NCBI GenBank assembly: GCA_029252805.1
Contig: JAQXAR010000024.1
Location: forward strand, 1-64,000
Direction: 5' to 3'
DNA from: Rickettsiales bacterium
GTDB lineage: Bacteria > Pseudomonadota > Alphaproteobacteria > Rickettsiales > JALZUV01
DNA: 64,000 nucleotides
Positions within the stretch are counted from its first letter, which is position 1, and every line of letters begins with the position of its first letter. The position numbers and the translations under genes are program-made. This document shows positions 6,742 to 16,373 of the stretch, piece after piece. The notes below the pieces were generated by a model, which saw only the letters and a program-made list of their open reading frames with translations, was not told where the DNA came from and searched no databases.

Positions 6742-6816
6742 TTACCGCTTACAATGTTTTCAGCGAATATTTGATAGCGCGTTGCAAAGAGTGCTGTCTC
6801 TAGTGGTTTAAGGTAA

Positions 6817-6834
6817 CCGCCTTAGTTCAGGAGT
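6817..6834 (+). repeat. Fragment resembling the 5' end of tRNA-Thr
   Basis: CCGCCTTAGTTCAGGAGT matches the start of the intact tRNA-Thr at 15101-15027 (CCGCCTTAGCTCAGGGGT) at 16 of 18 positions, but on the plus strand. It lies just left of the first decayed island gene and may mark the island edge. It is short, so chance is possible. Confidence 0.4.
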
Positions 6835-6844
6835 TTTTATTCTG

Positions 6845-7087
6845 TCAAAGGTGAGTTTTTTGGTCGAGTTGCAAGATGTCAATGATAGCAAATAGCTCTT
6901 CCATTTCTGTGAGGATCGTTTGCGATTCTTCGTGGAAGGTCATCGGAGTGAAGATAGAGGAAACCTCGAAGCGGTTTTTATTGGCAAAAATCATTAGCAG
7001 AAGTTTATTTTCATAAAATGCAGCCTGTACTCTGCCTGCCGCCAGTAGCGTGAATCGCCGTAAACCTCCCGTCGCTTTATCTTTGCG
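6845..7087 (-). pseudogene. Remnant reading frame, unknown family
   Basis: On the minus strand 80 codons stay open between stops. The reading begins around RKDKATGGLRRFTLLAAG and ends ILQLDQKTHL. The only ATG is at 6994, giving 49 residues. The composition looks protein-like, not random, but I do not recognise the family. The upstream end runs into the truncated DUF927 gene on the other strand at 7064-7087, so the original gene was probably cut at that junction. It could also be a short intact gene using a non-ATG start. Confidence 0.35.
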
Positions 7088-8248
7088 TTATCATGCGCTT
7101 TTGCCGCGCCACTGCTTCCGCTGGCAAATGTCGAGAGCGGCGGGTTTAATTTTCGTGGCAGTAGCAGTATGGGTAAATCTACGGCCTTAGAGCTTGCCGC
7201 TAGTGTTTGGGGAAGTCGTGACTATGTGCAACAATGGCGCGCTACTGGCAACGCGTTAGAGGCGGTATGTGAAGGGCACAACCATGCACTCTTATGTTTA
7301 GACGAACTAGGGCAAGCCGATAGTCGAGAGGCGGGCGAAACGGCCTATATGATTGCTAATGGTGCCGGTAAGAACCGATCCAAAGCAAGAGGTGGTTTGC
7401 GTCGCAAATATCAATGGCAGCTACTCTTTCTCTCTACGGGTGAAATCTCACTGGCCGATAAGCTGAGTGAGTCAGGTAAGAAGCCCCGCGCCGGTATGCT
7501 CACCCGTTTAGCAGATATTCCAGCCGATGCAGGTAAAGGCTATCGTATGTTTGATGCGCTTGGCAGCTTTGATGATGGTCACAAAATGGCGCAACATTTA
7601 AAGCAAGCTACTGCAAACTATTATGGCGTCGCAATTAGAAGTTTCCTACATGGCGTTGCCTCGAATTACGAAGCATTGCCAGCGATATTGCAGACGATTC
7701 AGAATGACTTTATCGCAAAGTATGTGCCGGTTGATGCTGACGGACAGGTCAAACGTGTAGCTTCTCGTTTTGCGTTGGTAGCCGCTGGTGGAGAGCTAGC
7801 TATTAGCAGCAAGATACTGCCTTACAATTCAGGCGAAGCGATGGAGGCCGTTGCAACCTGCTTTCAGGCATGGATTGAAGAAAGAGGCGGTTCACAGGCG
7901 CTTGAGACAGAACAAGCCATTTCACAGGTGCGTGGCTTTATTGAAGCACATCATGCGAGCCGCTTTATCACGATAACGGATAGCGGTGGTCAGGTTGACA
8001 GAGTGCAAAATGTTGCCGGTTATAAGCGTGAATCTGTCACCGGTGGTTATGAGTTCTTTGTGTTAGGCGATCCCTTCCGTAAAGAGATGTGCAAAGGATT
8101 AGATCATAAGCAAGTGTGCGAAGCGCTGATAGGTGAAGGGCATTTACTCCAAACCGAAGCGACTAAGTTTGTTTCAAAACACACCCTCCCTATCGGACGA
8201 AAACGAGTCTATCATCTCGCCCCGTCTATTTTGTTAGGGGGTGAATAA
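7064..8248 (+). pseudogene. DUF927-type helicase, N-terminus missing
   Basis: ATPase domain of a mobile-element replication protein of the DUF927 family, which usually pairs a primase-like N-terminus with a helicase C-terminus. The first ATG is at 7169, inside the P-loop (GSSSMGKST). In-frame homologous sequence continues upstream to a TAA at 7061-7063, reading FALSCAFAAPLLPLANVESG before the P-loop, as in intact family members. The 5' part is therefore lost. Other motifs remain: the acidic Walker B-like LLCLDELGQ and the sensor-like LLFLSTGE. Translation from ATG 7169 would give 359 residues without a working P-loop. The 3' end overlaps the next gene by one base (TAATG). Probably inactive. 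Confidence 0.7.
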
Positions 8249-8718
8249 TGCAGGATTACTTTACCAACCTATCATTTTCGACAGGGGCAGCAGGGGCACG
8301 GTGGGCACTACCGTCAAAACCCACAGTGACAGCCGATGATAACAAAGCACTACGGTGCCCACCCACTAAAAAACCGCAGGGGCAGCGGTGGGCAGCAACC
8401 AAGAGTGCCCACCAGTGCCCACCATCAAAAACGCAAGGTGGGCAACGGCATGATAAGTCAAAACCCTTGCTCACAAAGGATTTCAGCGCCAGTGCCCCTG
8501 CTGCCCACCCTGCCCACCGTGTTTTGGAGGGTAATGCAACGCATTGGCATGAGCAGTACGAAGAGCGCATTGCTATTAGGCAACATGATGGTGAGTTGCC
8601 AATAGAGGAAGCGATCTATTTATCTCGCTGGGCGACCCTGCATCAGTTCGTGGTACTTCATCATCCCAGCGTCATGGCTGAATTTGAAACCGCAATCAAT
8701 CAACCGGTGAGGCACTAA
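8248..8718 (+). CDS. Hypothetical island protein carrying an octamer-rich segment
   Basis: A 156-residue protein I do not recognise. It starts within the stop of the DUF927 gene (TAATG) and ends within the start of the DUF5681 gene, so the three form a tight translational chain. Residues about 18-92 are low complexity, with repeated WA, CPP and AHPAH groups. This is the by-product of eight copies of an 8-bp DNA word. The C-terminal 60 residues (EERIAIRQHDGELPIEEAIY and on) look like a small folded domain. The DNA word strip may matter more than the protein there. Confidence 0.6.
   Translation: MQDYFTNLSFSTGAAGARWALPSKPTVTADDNKALRCPPTKKPQGQRWAATKSAHQCPPSKTQGGQRHDKSKPLLTKDFSASAPAAHPAHRVLEGNATHWHEQYEERIAIRQHDGELPIEEAIYLSRWATLHQFVVLHHPSVMAEFETAINQPVRH
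8300..8518. repeat. Eight exact copies of GGTGGGCA / TGCCCACC
   Basis: GGTGGGCA occurs at 8300, 8387 and 8437. Its complement TGCCCACC occurs at 8356, 8406, 8416, 8502 and 8511. All are exact octamers in both orientations within 219 bases, with spacings of 56, 31, 19, 10, 21, 65 and 9. The strip lies directly after the element's helicase gene, where iterons of an origin would be expected. Confidence 0.85.
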
Positions 8719-9164
8719 TGACTGATAATACAGAATCAGAACAGTCTGAGGAAAAACCTTGGCAATTTAGCGCCGGTCAATCTGGCAATCCATCTGGCCG
8801 CCCTAAAGGGTCACGCAATCGCGCCACATTAGCCGTACAGGCATTGCTAGAGGGTGAAGGTGAGGCAATCACTCGCAAAGCCATTGAGAGCGCTAAAGAA
8901 GGCGATATGACAGCCATTCGTTTGGTATTGGAGCGACTGCTTCCACCTCGTAAAGATGCGCCGGTATCGTTTGAACTTCCGCCGCTTAAAACGGCTGAGG
9001 ATTTGCCAGTCGCTATTGCTGCACTTATCGAGGCGGTATCTATTGGCGAGTTAACACCGATAGAAGCACAAAGCGTGGCGAACCTATTAGAGCTCCACCA
9101 CCGTTCATTAGAAGCCTGTGAGTTGGAGCAACGTATTACCGCACTAGAGGGGAAGCAGATATGA
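8718..9164 (+). CDS. DUF5681 domain protein
   Basis: A 148-residue protein common in phages and integrative elements of proteobacteria. The N-terminal signature WQFSAGQSGNPSGRPKGSRN (about 16-35) is the DUF5681 motif, a basic glycine/proline-rich stretch thought to contact nucleic acid. The rest is helical with a leucine-rich C-terminus. The family's function is not established; a link to phage packaging or DNA handling is only suggested by context. It overlaps both neighbours (TAATG before, ATGA after), showing tight coupling in the island operon. Confidence 0.8.
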   Translation: MTDNTESEQSEEKPWQFSAGQSGNPSGRPKGSRNRATLAVQALLEGEGEAITRKAIESAKEGDMTAIRLVLERLLPPRKDAPVSFELPPLKTAEDLPVAIAALIEAVSIGELTPIEAQSVANLLELHHRSLEACELEQRITALEGKQI

Positions 9165-9328
9165 GCAAGTTACTATCGAAGCGATTAGAGCAGTTGGAGC
9201 GAGATACCCACTCTGATGATGAGATGCGATAGGTGCTGGCTTATCTAGGTGATACCACCGCTGATAATATTACCGTCACAGCGGCTTCATACCGCACGCA
9301 TGAGCAATGGCTAGATGAATTACAATAG
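9161..9328 (+). pseudogene. Small coiled protein interrupted by an in-frame TAG
   Basis: Starts at ATG 9161, overlapping the DUF5681 stop (ATGA). It codes for 23 residues (MSKLLSKRLEQLERDTHSDD and three more) before TAG at 9230-9232. The same frame continues for 31 codons, ending ASYRTHEQWLDELQ and TAG 9326-9328. A GTG directly follows the internal TAG, so reinitiation is possible. The N-terminus matches the next two small genes (M-K-L--RL--LE pattern). The simplest reading is a point-mutated pseudogene; a split gene or sequencing error cannot be excluded. Confidence 0.55.
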
Positions 9329-9339
9329 GAGTAAGTAGG

Positions 9340-9534
9340 ATGAGTAAACCACTAGAGAAACGTATTGGTAAGTTGGAGAAATCCATCACGCCGGATGAGA
9401 GGCCATTTCGGTTTTTATTTTGTGAGGTTGGTGAAACCAGTGAAGAGGCACGCGTACGCTATAACGCTGACAAGCCCGATGATCTGCTATGTGATGATGA
9501 TAATATTATGATTATCAGGTGGTGCAAGCCATGA
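9340..9534 (+). CDS. Small island protein with N-terminal coiled motif
   Basis: A 64-residue acidic protein of unknown function. It begins MSKPLEKRIGKLEKSI, the same short amphipathic helix seen in the genes before and after. The middle (RPFRFLFCEVGETSEEARVR) looks like a small alpha/beta unit. A ribosome site (AGGAGTAAGTAGG) precedes the ATG. Its stop overlaps the next start as ATGA at 9531-9534. The family resembles small proteins that follow DUF5681 genes in integrated elements. Confidence 0.6.
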   Translation: MSKPLEKRIGKLEKSITPDERPFRFLFCEVGETSEEARVRYNADKPDDLLCDDDNIMIIRWCKP

Positions 9535-9728
9535 ATCGATTGAACAACCGATTAGATAAGCTGGAGAACCTTAATAGGGCTGCGAGCTTACAATCCATTC
9601 CTGCAGATGAAACAGCTGCGCAGCGTTATTTACGTTTACTTGATATGGTGCCTAGGCAAAGAGCATCTAACCACAGTAATCAATATACCCCAGAGGAAGC
9701 CCATCGAGTGCTGAAAGGGGAACTCTAA
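9531..9728 (+). CDS. Small island protein with N-terminal coiled motif
   Basis: A 65-residue protein of unknown function starting MNRLNNRLDKLENLN, the third member of a set of adjacent small proteins sharing this helix. A GTG at 9519 would add four residues, but the ATGA overlap with the previous gene at 9531 strongly favours the ATG. The C-terminus (YTPEEAHRVLKGEL) is helical. This is the last gene of the overlapping island operon. Confidence 0.55.
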   Translation: MNRLNNRLDKLENLNRAASLQSIPADETAAQRYLRLLDMVPRQRASNHSNQYTPEEAHRVLKGEL

Positions 9729-9831
9729 CAGCACAAATAGGTAGGGTGGGTCAAATGTTCAGCGCTTGCCTTTTAGGGGCGGTGCGGGAGTCACATTTTT
9801 ACCGCCACAATAAATACATCATGAAAGGTTA

Positions 9832-10092
9832 ATGCGAATCTTAGTGGCTTCCTATTATGAAGATTGTGTGAAGTTATTTACTTCGTCACGAAGCTGTAAC
9901 GATTTTCTATTACCTTCCGTGGGCGTTTTTATCTCTTTTAGATTTCAGGTTTCTTACCCTCACCATCATTTGCTCCATTCTCTTCTACAAGAAGAATCTG
10001 AGCATACGGAAAATTCAAAGTATTTTACTTATGAAATTCCCAAAACAGACAAACTCGCACGGCAATATTGCCAATTGCATGATAAAAAATAA
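9832..10092 (+). CDS. Doubtful small reading frame
   Basis: An 86-codon frame ending 6 bases before the next gene. The composition (many S, H, Y, L without pattern) does not look like a protein, and no ribosome site precedes it. It is recorded because the 370 bases between 9728 and 10099 hold nothing else I can identify. Most likely non-coding leader. Confidence 0.15.
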   Translation: MRILVASYYEDCVKLFTSSRSCNDFLLPSVGVFISFRFQVSYPHHHLLHSLLQEESEHTENSKYFTYEIPKTDKLARQYCQLHDKK

Positions 10093-10098
10093 AACATC

Positions 10099-10701
10099 AT
10101 GACAAAATTCTTATTAGTGGCAATGCTGACGCTTTGCGCAGTAACCACAACTAATGCTCAGGACACTTGGAGCTTGGGCAGCTCTGCGAACTTCACTACG
10201 TTGAATGTGGATGGAAACACTACCGATATTTTTGCGGTAGGTATTTCTATTCAAACTCCAACTTACACCGGGGTTACAGTTCGAATTGGTGGGTCCGACC
10301 TTGTTAACCCTTTCAATGGTAATGAGGAGAAAGTTTTAGTATTAGCTGTCTCACAAGGGGTGGCATTATTAAAATTAACTGAATGGCTGAATGTTCCTGT
10401 CGCTGTATTGATAGAGCACATTTCAGCACAAGGTGGTTTTAGTAAAACCTTCGCCTTTTCCTTAGGTGCAGGTACAGGACTTTGGTTCAAAGTTAATGAT
10501 AAATTGACCTTAAAAGCTAATGCTACTTATAGTCACAGATGGTCTAAATTGTTCGGATTCGAACAACCACCTTTGTGGACTATCGGAGGCGGGCCAGGCT
10601 TTGCTTTGAAGGTGGTAGATCAATTAACCTTCAGTGCGGATTACAATTTTCGTGACACTGGCTCAACAACGCTGGTGGTAAGGGGGATCTACTCCTTCTA
10701 A
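10099..10701 (+). CDS. Predicted outer-membrane beta-barrel protein
   Basis: A 200-residue exported protein. A signal peptide (about 1-20, ending TNAQ) is followed by alternating hydrophobic/polar strands throughout, glycine-rich turns (GAGTGLWF, GGGPGFAL), and a C-terminal strand ending in phenylalanine (VVRGIYSF). A C-terminal aromatic residue is the usual signal for outer-membrane assembly. I do not recognise a specific family. It lies inside the island but looks intact and is followed by a terminator, so it may be expressed cargo. Confidence 0.65.
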   Translation: MTKFLLVAMLTLCAVTTTNAQDTWSLGSSANFTTLNVDGNTTDIFAVGISIQTPTYTGVTVRIGGSDLVNPFNGNEEKVLVLAVSQGVALLKLTEWLNVPVAVLIEHISAQGGFSKTFAFSLGAGTGLWFKVNDKLTLKANATYSHRWSKLFGFEQPPLWTIGGGPGFALKVVDQLTFSADYNFRDTGSTTLVVRGIYSF

Positions 10702-10773
10702 TTTTTTAACAAGAGTCAGGCAGTTTCTCAACCGCTTGTTTCTATTTTTTTCTGTCTCTATGAGACACCCATG

Positions 10774-10816
10774 AAGGGGAGATTGCCGCATTGCGCCGCA
10801 TCTCCCCTTAATTTTT
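10774..10816. terminator. Terminator between convergent genes
   Basis: AAGGGGAGAT at 10774-10783 pairs perfectly with ATCTCCCCTT at 10800-10809, with a 16-base loop. A T run (10812-10816) follows on the plus strand. It lies between the beta-barrel gene (plus) and a minus-strand gene. Confidence 0.75.
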
Positions 10817-10874
10817 GTCTAAATTTAGCCCCACTGCATCACGCTATTCACATGACACGGCGGGGTTTGAGTGG

Positions 10875-11201
10875 TTAGGCTGCCTGTCTCTTCTCAATAG
10901 CTGGTTGCTGTGCTATAGCATTTAGCAAACCTACAATCTCTGGGTATCTATCATGTAGTGGTGACTCACTTTGATGACAAAAAAGCATATAAGCGGCGGC
11001 GGCTTGGGCATCATCTAATGATTCAATCGAACTGATAGCACCTAACTTCTCATCCATCTCTTTTTCTAATGTTATCAACCCCTGTTCTATTGTCTCTACG
11101 TTTTCAGCGGCTTTGTCGCTTTCATCTTGAGCCGCTCTCCACTTGTGGTACTGCGCTTTATGAACACTATAAGCCTGTGCGAAGGTTCTCTTGTTATTCA
11201 T
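10875..11201 (-). CDS. Hypothetical helical protein
   Basis: A 108-residue protein of unknown function. The first 70 residues are strongly helical with a heptad-like pattern (DESDKAAENVETIEQGLITL), so a coiled coil is likely. The C-terminal part is alanine-rich. No signal peptide or membrane segment is present. It lies in the island, separated from its convergent neighbour by a terminator. Composition fits a real mobile-element gene, but there is no family match I can name. Confidence 0.55.
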   Translation of the reverse strand: MNNKRTFAQAYSVHKAQYHKWRAAQDESDKAAENVETIEQGLITLEKEMDEKLGAISSIESLDDAQAAAAYMLFCHQSESPLHDRYPEIVGLLNAIAQQPAIEKRQAA

Positions 11202-11529
11202 CTTACGCTCCCTAGTTTGATTCAGCTAAAAGCGTAGCGCTTTGCTTGAGCGCATATTCGATTGCACAGCTAAAAGGCTGTTTCCCTAAATGGGTATCAA
11301 CATACTCGTCATGTAATAGTTCAGGCGTCTAGTTTGGAGCGGATAGAAAGAGCCCTGCTAGATGGCGGCACGGTTAGCTTTATCAATGAAGGTAAAAACT
11401 ACGGCGTTATGCTTAATGGTGAGGTTGTTAGGGAGTAATTCTTGCTGTTCGCTTTTATCGCTTGAGCGACCTATTTGCGACCTAGAAGAAAATGGTGATT
11501 TTTCAAAAACCACCCAACCTATTGAAAAA
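11202..11529. other. Intergenic stretch with a short gene remnant
   Basis: No full gene is seen here. A plus-strand frame at 11334-11438 (TTG start possible) reads LERIERALLDGGTVSFINEG and 14 more residues to a TAA. This looks like the tail of a small phage-type gene. Its upstream part is closed by a stop after about 20 further codons. Confidence 0.3.
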
Positions 11530-11577
11530 CATGGTGCCGCCTACAAGATTCGAACTTGTGGCCTCGTCATTACCAAT
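11530..11577 (-). repeat. 48-bp copy of the 3' half of tRNA-Thr (attachment-site repeat A)
   Basis: Identical over 48 bases to 15025-15072, the 3' half of the intact tRNA-Thr including the anticodon loop and CCA. After the shared ...TTACCAAT the two sequences diverge. This is the pattern left when an element integrates in the anticodon loop and carries its own 3' half. Confidence 0.9.
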
Positions 11578-11698
11578 TATTCCTTTGCGTCTACGCCGTA
11601 GCCCTATCCATTACCCTGCATTGCGCTGTGACATTGCCTTTTGAGGATCGATATTGCGAATCGATTACTCTGTTTTACCCTGTAGTTTGCTGAAACCG

Positions 11699-11717
11699 CC
11701 TTCTTAAATCCTTCTTA
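11699..11717. repeat. Arm-type direct repeat CCTTCTTA x2 (left)
   Basis: CCTTCTTA at 11699-11706 and 11710-11717, spaced 11 bases start to start. The same word with the same spacing recurs at 15438 and 15449. It is near an att core, so it likely binds the integrase arm domain. Confidence 0.55.
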
Positions 11718-11745
11718 ATCACAAAATCATCACCTAAAACGAATG

Positions 11746-11775
11746 AAGAGGTTCTCAATTTCTTGAAAACCTCTT
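11746..11775 (-). terminator. Weak hairpin after the minus-strand gene
   Basis: AAGAGGTT at 11746-11753 and AACCTCTT at 11768-11775 form an 8-bp stem with a 14-base loop, 19 bases downstream of the gene ending at 11794. There is no clear T run on the minus strand, so the role is uncertain. Confidence 0.3.
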
Positions 11776-11793
11776 ACCATTCTGAGGAGAGCA

Positions 11794-12147
11794 TTAATCT
11801 TTCTCCTCATCTTTGCTGCGACTGCCCAGTATTACTGAAGGCGCAAATCCGATGCCTGAGATATAAGATTTTCTCATGTTCTCCAGATTTTGCTTATCAG
11901 CCTTCGACTGTAAGTCTGCCATTCGTTGAAACTCTCGTAAACCTTGTTCAGATCTCCTTTTACGTTCCTCTGCATCCTTCTTGTTTTCTCGTTCCTCCCA
12001 TTCCGCATTTTCTCTACGAATACGATCTCGATTTTTTTCGAGTTCATTTTCCCAGAACTTGCGGTCAGAACGATTTAAGATTGAAGAGAGTCCCCAAAAG
12101 AAAACCAACACTCCTGCTACCATTAAAGCAATGTGATACCATTCCAT
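11794..12147 (-). CDS. Single-pass membrane protein with coiled coil
   Basis: A 117-residue protein of unknown function. One N-terminal membrane helix (about 5-24, HIALMVAGVLVFFWGLSSIL) is followed by a long charged helix (27-90) rich in E, R, K and N that should form a coiled coil, and a short polar tail. Topology is probably N-out with the coil in the cytoplasm. It is the first gene inside the left edge of the tRNA-Thr element. It may be cargo or a membrane partner of the nuclease protein in the same element, which is only an inference from proximity. Confidence 0.6.
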   Translation of the reverse strand: MEWYHIALMVAGVLVFFWGLSSILNRSDRKFWENELEKNRDRIRRENAEWEERENKKDAEERKRRSEQGLREFQRMADLQSKADKQNLENMRKSYISGIGFAPSVILGSRSKDEEKD

Positions 12148-12383
12148 GATAAAGATTTTTGATTAAAAAATGATCGAGCCATCGCGGTTTTTGCGTCGTT
12201 AAGAATCGCTCGTTCAAATACTGTAACGAGTGGTAACAACCACCAAAGTATGAATTGAATAAATCAAAATACTCACACAAAAACCAGCCTCTATATTACC
12301 AAAAATTAAGACTCATAACAACCTATGTCATCAAATCTTAATAAATCGCTGCATGACTCTTTCACAACCCAAGTATTTCCACG

Positions 12384-12617
12384 TTAATCTTCGATCTGTT
12401 CCAACATATCACTGATCCTCACGTCCAGAGCAGAAGCTAGCCTCAGCATCGTTGCCAGTGTAGGATTACTATTACCTGCTTCGATTTTCGAGATCGCCTG
12501 ACGCGTCACACCCGATCTATCTGCCAATTTATCATGACTATAACCTAACGACTTCCTGCGTTTCTTAATGTCCGCAGCGTAGTTATTGATAAACTGTTCA
12601 ACTTCTTTTCTTTTCAC
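12384..12617 (-). CDS. XRE-family transcriptional repressor
   Basis: A 77-residue protein that is almost entirely a helix-turn-helix of the Cro/C1 (HTH_3) type. The recognition region reads DKLADRSGVTRQAISKIEAG (about 29-48), followed by NPTLATMLRLASALDV, the standard family continuation. It should bind DNA as a dimer. A perfect 10-bp palindrome lies 31 bases upstream of its start, between it and the divergent gene at 12692. It probably represses both itself and the plus-strand genes, as element control proteins do. Confidence 0.88.
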   Translation of the reverse strand: MKRKEVEQFINNYAADIKKRRKSLGYSHDKLADRSGVTRQAISKIEAGNSNPTLATMLRLASALDVRISDMLEQIED

Positions 12618-12647
12618 CTCATCAAACTAGCAGATTGACGCGAGAGC

Positions 12648-12671
12648 GTTACGCAACTACAGTTGCGTAAC
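12648..12671. promoter_or_regulatory. Operator palindrome for the XRE repressor
   Basis: GTTACGCAAC (12648-12657), spacer TACA, GTTGCGTAAC (12662-12671): a perfect 10-bp inverted repeat in the divergent promoter region. A further TTACGTGAG half-site-like word follows at about 12678. Position and symmetry fit repressor binding. Confidence 0.8.
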
Positions 12672-12691
12672 TATAATTACGTGAGGTTAAA

Positions 12692-12856
12692 ATGAATCAT
12701 TCCCTAAAAACACTAACAGCGGCAGCAATCATCGCTGCTTCACTCTTCCCTGTCACAGTAACTGCCGATCCTGCCATTGATAATTACTGTTTCAGTACCA
12801 CTACCAAACTATCCTATCGTATCCATCTTCAACGTAACAGTGGTTATCCTTACTGA
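12692..12856 (+). CDS. Short exported protein, probably a truncated gene
   Basis: A 54-residue frame from ATG 12692 to TGA 12854. The first 26 residues are a good signal peptide (MNHSLKTLTAAAIIAASLFP then VTVTA before DPAIDN). The remainder is only about 28 residues and has no recognised domain. It begins 20 bases after the operator palindrome, so it is probably the first gene repressed by the XRE protein. The mature part overlaps the start of the recombinase fragment in another frame. This suggests that a deletion joined a secreted-protein start to a recombinase end. Confidence 0.5.
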   Translation: MNHSLKTLTAAAIIAASLFPVTVTADPAIDNYCFSTTTKLSYRIHLQRNSGYPY

Positions 12857-13445
12857 TCGCAAGTTGTGGTTCACAGAGGAATCTAGAACCTCATTGTTGA
12901 AAGAGGATCAGATTTATCCGTGGATGCAACATCTTCAATCTTACCCTAACGATGTCATGTACGATTCTATCCTGCTCATGCTCCTCAGTGGAGTCCGTAA
13001 AAACGAAGCATTCAAACTGAAGTGGTCTGATGTTGATTTTGAGGATCGTTCATTCATCCTACGTAACACAAAAAATCGAACCGATCATGAATTACCCATT
13101 ACGACTCAAATTGAAACAGTCCTTAAACGCCGTTTAACCTCCCGTATGAACGATTATGTCTTTCCAAGCAATCGAAGCAACAGCGGACACTTAATCAACA
13201 TCAGTAAAGCAGTGAATCATACGAATGAGCAATCCAACCTATCCATCACTGTTCATGATCTCCGTAGAACATTTTCCATGATCGCCTCAAGACTTGACTT
13301 CAACGATTACACTATCAAACGCCTCATCAATCACAGTACTAAATCAGATGTTACTTCCATCTACCTACCTATTGATACTGATGATCTTCGTAAACCTCTT
13401 CAAACCATCAATGATAAACTCAATAAGATACTCATAAACATTTAA
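12777..13445 (+). pseudogene. Tyrosine recombinase (integrase), catalytic domain only
   Basis: A 222-residue frame containing the full catalytic domain of a phage-type integrase: Arg74 (SGVRKNEAF), Lys99 in the beta-hairpin, His160 and Arg163 (HDLRRTF), His186 (LINHST) and Tyr196 as nucleophile. The usual N-terminal arm-binding and core-binding domains, about 150-200 residues, are missing. The first 25 residues do not resemble the family. Homology seems to begin around TDRKLWFTEESRT. The protein could still dimerise or cleave, but arm-site binding should be lost. It is the only recombinase visible and is the likely source of the integration at tRNA-Thr. Confidence 0.75.
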
Positions 13446-13584
13446 CCTAATTACAATTATCCCAATCATCATATCCACCCATAGCAGTACCAATGCATCG
13501 CTACTAAACGTCACAGAGTTTGAGGATGTAGATGATCGTCAGAAGCGCTGAGTGGTGCACACAGTTACTGATCAATCACGAATG

Positions 13585-13926
13585 TTAACGAGTGAAGATG
13601 AACTCGTTTGAAATCAAGAAGTTTTCGTAATTTTTCTCACGAGCGGTTTGCTTCGTAATGTACTCAGCAATTCGTCCTAAATCTCCGTTATTCAGAGGCT
13701 GTAATGTTGATTTGATTGCAGACTCATTATCAACCGCAACATAAACCTCACCCGAAGGAACAATCTCCTCCCATGCCTTTTCAGCATGATGCAAAAAGTT
13801 GCAGTCATTTACCCGAAGCAGTGAATGATAGTGGATGTTCGTCTCACAATTTTCGAGAACCCTACAGTAACACTTGGGCATTACACTCAGGCTGTCCGTG
13901 GCGGCGAAGAAGCGATGGAAATGCTT
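13585..13926 (-). pseudogene. HUH-type Rep / rolling-circle initiator fragment
   Basis: From ATG 13881 the frame gives 98 residues, but family-like sequence continues upstream without an ATG (HFHRFFAATDSLSV) to a TGA just beyond 13926. Motif II of HUH endonucleases is present as NIHYHSLLRV (two histidines around a bulky residue). A Y-x-x-K motif (EYITK) about 60 residues later matches the catalytic tyrosine motif. The N-terminal motif I region is gone. This is probably the decayed replication or mobilisation protein of the element. The family call rests on two short motifs. Confidence 0.5.
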
Positions 13927-13979
13927 TCAGGGTATTAGCGTTGGCTGCTTAATCAACTTAACCTTAAGGCCTGCAAGTT

Positions 13980-14912
13980 TTAGTAGTTCTGGGTCTTCTT
14001 ATCTCTTTCTCGTATAATAGATTTCAACTCTTCACCTGCCGCTACACCCGTGGCGGCGATTGCATCTGCAACATTAAGCCATTGATCTAGATTCGAATCG
14101 TTAAGTGACTTTTTGGCAAGGACGCAAACGCGGAAACCAATTCCTAGTTCGTTCCAAAATTGATGATCACCTAAAGTTTCCCAGCTTGTAGCTGCCGCTA
14201 AAATAGAAGGTTCGGAAAGCTCAGCTTTTACCAGTTCGATTGTATCAAGAAATAAACGCGCAATGGTTGGGCATGCATTCGATATTACAGTTATCTCTGT
14301 TAGAATTGGAAAAAAGGGCAATAGCTGATCATCTGTCAGTCCCTTCGTATATGCAGTAGCACTACCAAAGCCCTCACTTGTTTTTAAAAAGAAGGCTAAT
14401 ATGAGCTCTTTAAGATGTATCTCCATACCTTTTTGTGGAGATTGTATACGCATCTGATTATTACTGCGCCCCGCCGTAGTAAGTAGCTCTAAAAAAGATT
14501 CGGCAGTTGTGGTGTGTCTTGCAAGTTCTAAGGATTCTTGAACGCCGTTTTCGATAGCTCCTGTAGTGCGTTCTATGGCTGCTGCGTAGTATCGTGAAGG
14601 AGCTATAGTCCTGCTTTTAACAATATTAGCAACGATAGTGGCAAAGTTTTGATTATTCTCTGTAAAGGCTATGGATCGTTTCGCTTGTATCTCTAGGCAC
14701 TTTTCCTCGCCAGACTTCGTTATTCCTTTTACAATAACGTCATCAAGTGGATACCCTTGTTGATGCCGCTGGAACTCAATTCTTTTAACTTCCACATTCG
14801 GCATCCCAAATGCTTCAGTTCCAACAAGCATGGCCAACGCATAGTGCGTTCCTACTTTTACTTCAAACTGTGCTCCTGCTGGTCCAGTCGCTCTTGGGCT
14901 AGAATCTTTCAT
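13980..14912 (-). CDS. DUF4297/Cap4-like nuclease-domain protein
   Basis: A 310-residue cytoplasmic protein. Residues about 10-95 match the N-terminal nuclease domain seen in DUF4297/Cap4-type and related large anti-phage proteins. It shows the opening GAQFEVKVGTHYALAML, an acidic pair in PLDDVIV (Asp57/Asp58), and EIQAK (Glu74, Lys78), together forming a PD-(D/E)xK-type site. The rest is helical, with no P-loop visible. Family members are usually much longer, with an ATPase or sensor part, so this one is either a stand-alone nuclease or a shortened version. It sits as cargo beside the tRNA edge of the element, a typical place for defence genes. Function is inferred, not shown. Confidence 0.55.
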   Translation of the reverse strand: MKDSSPRATGPAGAQFEVKVGTHYALAMLVGTEAFGMPNVEVKRIEFQRHQQGYPLDDVIVKGITKSGEEKCLEIQAKRSIAFTENNQNFATIVANIVKSRTIAPSRYYAAAIERTTGAIENGVQESLELARHTTTAESFLELLTTAGRSNNQMRIQSPQKGMEIHLKELILAFFLKTSEGFGSATAYTKGLTDDQLLPFFPILTEITVISNACPTIARLFLDTIELVKAELSEPSILAAATSWETLGDHQFWNELGIGFRVCVLAKKSLNDSNLDQWLNVADAIAATGVAAGEELKSIIRERDKKTQNY

Positions 14913-15026
14913 TTGAGAAATGTATACATTCGGTCCATTTTTCGCAAACTTTCAGAAAGTATTTTACGGTTCTCTAATTTGAATTTCTTGACTGAGGTCT
15001 ATACTCGCCTAACATATTGAGAAGCA

Positions 15027-15101
15027 TGGTGCCGCCTACAAGATTCGAACTTGTGGCCTCGTCATTACCAATGACGCGCTCTACCCCTGAGCTAAGGCGG
15101 C
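15027..15101 (-). tRNA. tRNA-Thr (anticodon GGT)
   Basis: Complete cloverleaf on the minus strand. The acceptor stem GCCGCC/GGCGGC, D arm GCTCAGGGGTAGAGC, anticodon stem CGTCA/TGACG with loop TTGGTAA (anticodon GGT), T arm ACAAG/CTTGT with loop TTCGAAT, and encoded CCA at 15029-15027 are all intact. Its 3' half is identical to the repeat at 11530-11577, so it was probably restored by an integrated element. Confidence 0.95.
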
Positions 15102-15294
15102 ATTTGCCTTGATGCATTCACGAAATCTAGCGGCAAACACAACGCAAACACGCTGCTTTAGAATCCCATTTGCCGCTGTCCTCATGACAGCTAAAACTAC
15201 TTCGTTCACTTTTCCAGCTTCAAGCCTATCGCGGCTTTTCGCTGGTTTGACACTTTTGCCGTCTCATCTTTAGTGTGCAGTGTGAACTACTGCT

Positions 15295-15330
15295 TACCAA
15301 TGAGGTACTCTACCACTGAGTTACAACGGC
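15295..15330 (-). repeat. Degenerate 5' half of a tRNA-Thr (piece C)
   Basis: Read on the minus strand from 15330: GCCGTTGTAACTCAGTGGTA, then GAGTACCTCATTGGTA. It matches the intact tRNA-Thr at most D-arm and anticodon-loop positions but differs in the acceptor stem. Homology stops right after the GGT anticodon. Its acceptor pairs better with the 3' piece at 15835-15880 than with the intact tRNA. Confidence 0.7.
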
Positions 15331-15437
15331 ACATAATGAAGAGGCGTTCTTACAACAAAGCAAAATTTCCCGCAAGTACTGCCTCAAATGTTTTTGAATT
15401 TTCTATCATGTAACTAACCACAAAAATTCACAATGTG

Positions 15438-15456
15438 CCTTCTTATAGCCTTCTTA
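15438..15456. repeat. Arm-type direct repeat CCTTCTTA x2 (right)
   Basis: CCTTCTTA at 15438-15445 and 15449-15456, with the same 11-base spacing as the pair at 11699. Both pairs lie 100-150 bases from a tRNA anticodon-loop core, as arm sites do. Confidence 0.55.
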
Positions 15457-15558
15457 ATTGAAAAACGTCGATTTCAATGAAAACCGAAAAATCCTATAAT
15501 ATTTTGTTATTAAATGATAATCTACCCATCACTCTTATCCAAAATCACTGAGGACATA

Positions 15559-15598
15559 TCATTACCAATGACGCGCTCTACCCCTGAGCTAAGGCGGC
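15559..15598 (-). repeat. Exact 40-bp copy of the tRNA-Thr 5' half (piece D)
   Basis: Identical to 15062-15101, covering the acceptor 5' strand to the anticodon loop. Homology starts at the anticodon loop (TCATTACCAATG on the plus strand). With the intact tRNA it forms a direct repeat 497 bases apart. Confidence 0.88.
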
Positions 15599-15834
15599 TA
15601 CTGATGAGTAAGCGTTAATACAACAATGCGTTTATCCTAGCAAGTGCCTTGATAGGAGCTTTTTACATTTGTTTTCTGTGGAGAGGCGGCTTGCTCAAAT
15701 TACAGCCCTATAACCGACAAATTCCAGTCAAGTTCGTACTAATACCGTACCTTTGTATTTTTGATGAAATGAGTAAGAACTTCAAACCTGCTATTCATGC
15801 GCCTTACAACGAATCAACAGCAAGTTGTGTGAAG
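15599..15834. other. Non-coding remnant
   Basis: A 64-codon plus-strand frame at 15649-15843 runs through this region into the tRNA piece, but its composition is not protein-like. I see nothing else. Confidence 0.3.
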
Positions 15835-15880
15835 CATTGGTAGTGGCGAGGCTGCAAGTTTGGATCTTGTAGACGGCACC
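15835..15880 (+). repeat. Degenerate tRNA-Thr 3' half, inverted (piece E)
   Basis: From CATTGGTA at 15835 to the final CC at 15880 it matches the intact tRNA-Thr 3' half at about 38 of 46 positions, but on the plus strand. The T loop is damaged (TTTGGAT). A T6 run follows. It marks the right edge of the island. Confidence 0.75.
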
Positions 15881-15905
15881 TTTTTTAATTAATTTATTTG
15901 TCCAT

Positions 15906-15942: not shown

Positions 15943-16074
15943 ATGGAAAAGCCCGCTAAATCACAGTCACAGCCAAAAAATAATAAGCCAAAGCCGCAAT
16001 TGGCCGCGGCTTTACGTGCAAATTTGAAGCGTCGTAAGGTGGTGGATAAGGCGAAGAAAGACGGGCAAGCTTGA
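15943..16074 (+). CDS. Small basic protein
   Basis: A 43-residue lysine/proline-rich protein starting MEKPAKSQSQ, with an AALRANLKRRK helix in the middle. It resembles short basic proteins that are conserved in alphaproteobacteria and end in a similar AALRANL-RRK helix, but the family has no known function that I can name. It starts just after a good promoter and its stop overlaps the TTG start of the next gene (TTGA). It could bind nucleic acid, judging only from charge. Confidence 0.6.
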   Translation: MEKPAKSQSQPKNNKPKPQLAAALRANLKRRKVVDKAKKDGQA

Positions 16075-16373
16075 GTAAAAAGCCGCCTAAACCCCATACC
16101 GCAAAAGAAAAAAAAGAAGCGCTTCGCAAGAAGAATAGATGGTTGTTTGAGACCTTCACCGTTGCCAATCGTGCGGCGGATAATGTGGATATTGGAGCGC
16201 CTGAAGTGGTGGCTTCGCCCGAGCCCGAAAAGACAGTCGTGCAGCTTAAAGAAGAAGATGCGCTAGAGCGTGCGCAGCAGATTCGTAATCGTATTAGTGG
16301 TCGTAAACGGGCGTCCAAAGATAAATGGAATCGCTTTGCTGGCACCTCCGGCGGTGGTGGTCGCGGAAGGTAA
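16071..16373 (+). CDS. Basic hypothetical protein, TTG start
   Basis: A 100-residue cytoplasmic protein of unknown function. It begins at TTG 16071, overlapping the previous stop by four bases, so translation is coupled. The N-terminal 30 residues are lysine-rich, the centre is acidic, and the C-terminal third is basic (RNRISGRKRASKDKW) and ends in a GGGGRGR tail. It could be a nucleic-acid-associated protein; there is no clear family. Operon with the preceding small basic protein. Confidence 0.6.
   Translation: MSKKPPKPHTAKEKKEALRKKNRWLFETFTVANRAADNVDIGAPEVVASPEPEKTVVQLKEEDALERAQQIRNRISGRKRASKDKWNRFAGTSGGGGRGR

What the first reader, a model, noticed from the sequence alone, without database searches (positions are those of the whole stretch)
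11530..15101. 3.5-kb element integrated in the anticodon loop of tRNA-Thr(GGT)
An exact 48-bp direct repeat (11530-11577 and 15025-15072) consists of the 3' half of tRNA-Thr including the anticodon loop and CCA. Between the copies lie a recombinase, a repressor with operator, a Rep remnant and a nuclease-domain gene. The unusually small size suggests a satellite-like or mini integrative element. The repeat is seen directly; the integration model is established for tRNA-targeting tyrosine recombinases.
Basis: partly seen in the sequence, partly recalled or inferred. Interest (0 to 1): 0.7.

Follow-up and report, generated by a model that had tools for sequence, protein, structure and literature searches.

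The report
Decayed tRNA-replacing mobile element remnant
The repeat is real and marks an old mobile DNA insertion in a threonine tRNA gene, but the insert is a shrunken wreck inside a larger pile-up, and relatives suggest that such elements break the host's tRNA gene and supply a complete replacement of their own.

Summary
The 48-bp repeat is exact and where stated. An empty site exists in a same-genus genome, but it lacks about 9.1 kb (window 6742-15896), so the 3.5-kb piece is one layer of a tRNA-Thr(GGT) hot spot. It is not a natural mini-element. Its integrase keeps only the catalytic domain, its HUH Rep has lost the N-terminal half, and its 'nuclease' gene is an in-frame internal deletion (about 1,395 aa lost) of a roughly 1,700-aa Avs4-like antiviral STAND NTPase.

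The intact tRNA-Thr(GGT), the only one found in this genome, then lies inside the element. In genome G129, two nested elements each split a tRNA-Thr and bring their own; the inner one carries relatives of this integrase, Rep and repressor.

Best reading: a decayed member of a family of tRNA-replacing integrative elements, resembling tRNA-dependent lysogeny. For this locus a classic 3'-half island plus a second insertion remains possible.

The parts
15559..15598 (-). 5' half of tRNA-Thr(GGT), positions 1-40, exact; proposed right half of the split resident tRNA (T0)
   Evidence: joins with 11532-11577 (11-bp overlap) into a tRNA that ARAGORN reads as tRNA-Thr(GGT)
11532..11577 (-). 3' half of tRNA-Thr(GGT), positions 30-75, exact; left half of the split tRNA
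11578..15558 (.). proposed full extent of the element (3,981 bp), between the two halves
15027..15101 (-). intact tRNA-Thr(GGT), the only one found in this genome; proposed element-borne replacement tRNA
15291..15330 (-). diverged 5' half of a tRNA-Thr (D stem ACTC/GAGT instead of GCTC/GAGC, a paired change); probable 5' half of an earlier element-borne tRNA
15437..15465 (+). arm-type repeat, right side (two 11-bp units CCTTCTTANNN)
11698..11726 (+). arm-type repeat, left side, 83% identical to 15437-15465
12777..13445 (+). tyrosine recombinase remnant: catalytic domain only (R...HxLRR...H...Y kept), arm-binding and core-binding domains missing
12384..12617 (-). Cro/CI-type HTH repressor, 77 aa
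13585..13881 (-). HUH Rep remnant (C-terminal 98 aa; homologues 161-175 aa, REP_ORF2/G2P-like)
13980..14912 (-). fused remnant of a roughly 1,700-aa Avs4-like STAND NTPase: N-terminal nuclease region plus C-terminal end, about 1,395 aa deleted in frame
11794..12147 (-). 117-aa protein, no convincing family
15835..15880 (+). inverted, decayed 3' half of tRNA-Thr (positions 29-74, 85%)
6742..11531 (.). further accessory DNA left of the 3' half, with a truncated DUF927 primase (7169-8248)
   Evidence: absent from the G001 empty site
15599..15896 (.). accessory debris between the 5' half and the conserved right flank
   Evidence: absent from G001

Best explanation
The locus is the decayed remnant of an integrative element that inserted by tyrosine recombination in the anticodon loop of tRNA-Thr(GGT). 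Its ends are about 11578 and 15558. Attachment site and target shared only a short core (11 bp, ATTGGTAATGA), so insertion split the resident tRNA into a 5' half (15559-15598) and a 3' half (11532-11577). The element brought a complete tRNA-Thr(GGT) near its right end (15027-15101), which now serves the cell. The extra diverged 5' half (15291-15330) suggests that two such elements were nested, the second splitting the tRNA of the first. The genes have since decayed. The remnant is probably immobile by itself, and is kept because an imprecise loss would remove the only intact tRNA-Thr(GGT). Shown here: the repeat, both halves, the empty site, the truncations, the same layout in relatives. Inferred: that the intact tRNA came with the element, the order of events, and why it persists.
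For: The two halves overlap by 11 nt and rebuild a perfect tRNA. G052, another family, has the same trio beside a homologue of the same flanking gene: 5' half, 98 bp, intact tRNA, 13.5 kb with an integrase, 3' half, core 8 bp. G129 shows the mechanism clearly for tRNA-Thr(CGT): the resident tRNA is split 73 kb apart, inside it an element tRNA with another acceptor stem is split 21 kb apart (its 3' end AGACGGCACCA was predicted and then found at 276118-276162), and inside that lies an intact third tRNA. The inner element carries homologues of the window's integrase (41%), Rep (40%) and HTH (34%). In G117, G084 and G110 a resident 5' half stands beside a shared arm-plus-complete-tRNA module. The intact tRNA is the only tRNA-Thr(GGT) found here.
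Against: The intact tRNA is identical to the rebuilt resident tRNA (75 of 75) and to the G001 native tRNA; the same holds within G052. A classic island whose attP carries the 3' half predicts that identity, while a foreign tRNA would be expected to differ. No sigma-70-like site was found upstream of 15101. The 3' half matching the diverged 5' half was not found. The inverted 3' half, and the absence of the G001-type upstream region next to any copy, are unexplained.
Confidence: 0.6

Rival explanations
1. Classic tRNA island plus a second event: one element whose attP carries the 3' half of tRNA-Thr (ends 11578 and 15026) rebuilt the tRNA at 15027-15101, and separate insertions on the 5' side left the extra 5' halves.
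For: Exact identity of the 3' halves, as usual for such islands; the Islander survey lists 3,760 islands with 3' fragments and 159 with 5' fragments (PMC4383910); a paralogous 6.6-kb element in tRNA-Val of the same genome has this plain layout.
Against: Needs a 5'-half-carrying element reduced to about 200-460 bp here and, independently, to 98 bp in G052; no arm repeats inside 15026.
Confidence: 0.3
2. An intact, naturally small satellite-like element of 3.5 kb.
For: Open reading frames without stops; repressor, recombinase and Rep genes present.
Against: The integrase lacks about 190 N-terminal residues that its homologues have; Rep lacks its N-terminal half; the nuclease gene lacks about 1,395 internal residues; no packaging or capsid-related gene seen.
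Confidence: 0.04
3. Tandem duplication and decay of tRNA genes without site-specific recombination.
For: Several tRNA pieces, each with upstream DNA, in 0.8 kb.
Against: The two exact halves and the diverged 5' half all break in or next to the anticodon loop (positions 30, 37, 40); empty site in G001; recombinase gene present; the G129 nest.
Confidence: 0.04

Closest known systems
tRNA-dependent lysogeny (mycobacteriophages Fionnbharth and cluster L; mBio 2024, PMC10865867)
   Same: Short common core (about 10 bp), resident tRNA not rebuilt, element carries a complete tRNA of the same isotype.
   Different: Here the tRNA sits within about 0.1-1.2 kb of the attachment core in elements that do not look like phages, and elements nest in each other's tRNA. 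In Fionnbharth the tRNA differs in sequence from the host's; in the window it is identical. The need for the tRNA was not tested.
Sinorhizobium meliloti prophages and islands whose own tRNA replaces the inactivated one (PMC11476347)
   Same: Alphaproteobacteria; includes a phage-related tRNA-Thr(GGU); inactivated tRNA gene replaced by one on the insert.
   Different: Prophages and phage-related islands there; no nested relay with reconstructable halves was described in the passages read.
tRNA genomic islands (Islander, PMC4383910)
   Same: Tyrosine integrase, crossover centred on the anticodon (site A), intact tRNA plus a fragment of it.
   Different: Both a 5' and a 3' fragment flank one intact tRNA; the integrase here is truncated.
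Avs4-like antiviral STAND NTPases
   Same: The 310-aa gene aligns to the N- and C-termini of a 1,703-aa protein that matches PDC-M54A and Avs4 profiles.
   Different: The NTPase and nearly all of the middle are deleted.

Membership tests
tRNA genomic island (Islander sense) | intact tRNA and a fragment of it in the same orientation, 3' fragment downstream | tested here: met
tRNA genomic island (Islander sense) | integrase gene in the interval | tested here: met
   PF00589 catalytic domain, E 5.5e-23, but N-terminal domains missing
tRNA genomic island (Islander sense) | absent from a related genome | tested here: met
   G001 empty site, as part of a larger absent block
tRNA-dependent (tRNA-replacing) integration | resident tRNA split, with a short core that does not rebuild it | tested here: inconclusive
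   halves share 11 bp, but the identity of the intact copy leaves the classic reading open; clear in G129
tRNA-dependent (tRNA-replacing) integration | element encodes a complete tRNA of the same isotype with its own promoter | tested here: inconclusive
   intact tRNA-Thr(GGT) lies between the halves; no consensus promoter upstream; complete tRNA shown in G117, G084, G110 and G129
tRNA-dependent (tRNA-replacing) integration | element tRNA required for viable integration | not testable with these tools
   needs an experiment; only one intact tRNA-Thr(GGT) was found
Phage satellite (PICI/P4-like) | genes that redirect a helper phage's packaging | tested here: not met
   no such match in PHROGs or Pfam for the element's genes; the remnant may have lost genes
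Mobilizable or conjugative element | relaxase or conjugation genes | tested here: not met
   none among the element's ORFs; the Rep homologues are REP_ORF2/G2P-like

The most novel reading that the evidence does not exclude
In this alphaproteobacterial order, threonine tRNA genes are passed on by a relay of mobile elements. Each newcomer breaks the current sole tRNA-Thr at its anticodon loop and installs its own complete copy near its attachment core. Elements thereby nest and become hard to lose, and decayed remnants such as this one persist as carriers of an essential tRNA.
Probability: 0.45. Interest if true: 0.7.

Novelty: new variant of a known kind. Interest (0 to 1): 0.5.

Why it matters
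If the relay reading holds, an essential tRNA gene in these bacteria would be a mobile-element gene, replaced repeatedly by horizontal transfer. This would explain why dead elements persist at tRNA loci and would show that tRNA-replacing integration is not special to mycobacteriophages. It also warns island finders, which look for one intact tRNA plus one fragment, that element ends can lie beyond the intact tRNA.

Tried and rejected
The MFS gene found no named relatives in genome contigs; PccB did (nearest a MAG labelled Rickettsiales, 81%), but with no synteny at the tRNA. The element's DNA, the nuclease and the Rep fragment gave no hit in phage records, and the nuclease none in viral contigs; two exact attachment-region patterns gave none in viral contigs either. 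A 5' fragment near 6817 was at chance level. Arm repeats in G052 and in G129's inner element were not above chance, so that test supports only G000 and G129's outer element. I first took the extra 5' halves for remains of 5'-half-carrying elements and dropped this as the lead after G129. In the pattern search of 344 genomes of the order the displayed matches were cut off; I followed up 16 genomes with several hits and found local arrays of tRNA-Thr(GGT) 5' halves only in G000 and G052.

Full report
Observation. The 48-bp repeat is exact and at the stated coordinates. It holds positions 30-75 of tRNA-Thr(GGT) plus two bases. The window has one intact tRNA, tRNA-Thr(GGT) at 15027-15101 on the minus strand. 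Searches of the window's own genome (2.19 Mb, 99% complete) found no other tRNA-Thr(GGT).

Empty site. The only other genome of the genus that was searched, G001, has the tRNA as a single copy, identical in sequence, between homologues of the gene ending at window 6741 and of the DNA from 15897 on. So all of 6742-15896, about 9.1 kb, is accessory in this genome. That left part has a DUF927 primase that matches only the C-terminal part of its profile (556-889 of 895).

State of the genes. The integrase (222 aa) aligns from about residue 16-32 onward with homologues that mostly lie in 350-425-aa frames, including a full-length paralogue of 419 aa in the same genome with arm-binding and central domains. 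Its catalytic residues are kept, but both N-terminal domains are gone. The Rep fragment (98 aa) matches the C-terminal part of 161-175-aa HUH proteins, from the HYH motif to the YITK tyrosine. The nuclease gene (310 aa) aligns at 62% with residues 9-162 and at 60% with residues 1558-1700 of a 1,703-aa Phyllobacterium protein, which matches PDC-M54A and Avs4 profiles. About 1,395 residues were lost in frame. In about 640 order and class genomes, homologues lie in 1,711-1,806-aa frames, apart from one hit at a contig end. The small size is therefore the result of deletions.

Boundaries. Besides the 3' half at 11532-11577, there is an exact 5' half (positions 1-40) at 15559-15598, a diverged 5' half at 15291-15330, and an inverted, diverged 3' half at 15835-15880. 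The two exact halves share 11 nt and rebuild a tRNA that ARAGORN accepts. A tandem 11-bp motif lies 101-122 bp inside 15558 and 119-140 bp inside 11578 in the same orientation. None of 2,000 shuffles reached its score. Taking 15026 as the right end gives p = 0.196, and 15290 gives 0.344. Such arm-type repeats on both sides of a core are what an attP needs (established knowledge of tyrosine integrases). I therefore put the element at 11578-15558, with the intact tRNA inside it.

Comparison. G052, of another family, has at the same place (next to a homologue of the flanking gene 16071-16373) a 5' half, 98 bp, an intact tRNA-Thr(GGT), 13.5 kb with an integrase, and a 3' half; the halves share 8 bp. 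For tRNA-Thr(CGT) the case is clearer. In G129 the resident halves at 254811 and 327999 pair with each other (GCCGCCT with AGGCGGC). Inside them, halves of a second tRNA at 254998 and 276118 pair with each other (GCCGTCT with AGACGGC). Inside those lies an intact third tRNA with a different acceptor stem. I predicted the 3' end of the second tRNA before finding it. The inner 21-kb element holds homologues of the window's integrase (41%, full length, 426 aa), Rep and HTH. G117, G084 and G110 show a resident 5' half next to a shared arm-plus-complete-tRNA module, and G117 and G124, of different families, share 147 bp of it at 98%.

Mechanism. Shown: split tRNAs, a complete tRNA between the halves, recombinase genes, and nesting in G129. 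Inferred for the window: recombination at a short core split the resident tRNA; the element's own tRNA took over; a second element probably did the same to the first one's tRNA (diverged 5' half); deletions then removed most of the genes. The sole intact tRNA-Thr(GGT) lying inside the wreck would explain why it stays.

Doubts. In the window and in G052 the intact tRNA is identical to the rebuilt resident one, which a classic 3'-half island predicts. The missing 3' partner of the diverged 5' half, the inverted 3' half, the lack of a consensus promoter upstream of the intact tRNA, and the absence of the G001-type upstream region from every copy are not explained. I give the replacement model 0.6 and the classic model plus a second event 0.3.

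Known context. tRNA-dependent lysogeny was described for mycobacteriophages (PMC10865867) and noted in S. meliloti prophages and islands, including a tRNA-Thr(GGU) (PMC11476347). Islander found 2,083 anticodon-centred islands and 159 with 5' fragments (PMC4383910). So the kind is known; the nested relay, the tRNA near the core and the occurrence in this order are the new parts.

Noticed in passing
L050 (own genome, contig C18) 69-6805: A 6.6-kb element with a full-length 419-aa integrase, an HTH gene and an HUH-like Rep sits between an intact tRNA-Val(GAC) and a 79%-identical copy of its 3' half; it is a paralogue of the window's element with the classic island layout.
   Followed up: partly
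window 15835-15880: Inverted, decayed 3' half of tRNA-Thr right at the border of the conserved flank; suggests an inversion or an element inserted in the other orientation.
   Followed up: no
window 6742-11531: Accessory segment with a truncated DUF927 primase, a DUF5681 protein and a beta-barrel protein, without an integrase among the genes tested or a detectable tRNA fragment at its left end.
   Followed up: partly
L081 6862-8510 (genome G129, contig C23): tRNA-Thr(GGT) beside the same flanking gene, followed by an excisionase-like HTH gene and an HUH Rep homologous to the window's; no integrase or tRNA fragment found nearby, so perhaps another remnant at the same hot spot.
   Followed up: partly
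L200 and L201: 147 bp covering an attachment arm and a complete tRNA-Thr(CGT) are 98% identical between genomes of two families; two of the three differences form a compensating pair in the anticodon stem.
   Followed up: partly
L222 1465-2178 (genome G052, contig C1): Two tRNA-Thr(CGT) copies on opposite strands 0.6 kb apart, the second apparently damaged at its 3' end.
   Followed up: no
L075 (Legionella fallonii LLAP-10 plasmid III): A 14.6-kb plasmid carries an integrase 36% identical to the window's together with a DUF927 gene, the same two gene types found in the window's pile-up.
   Followed up: no
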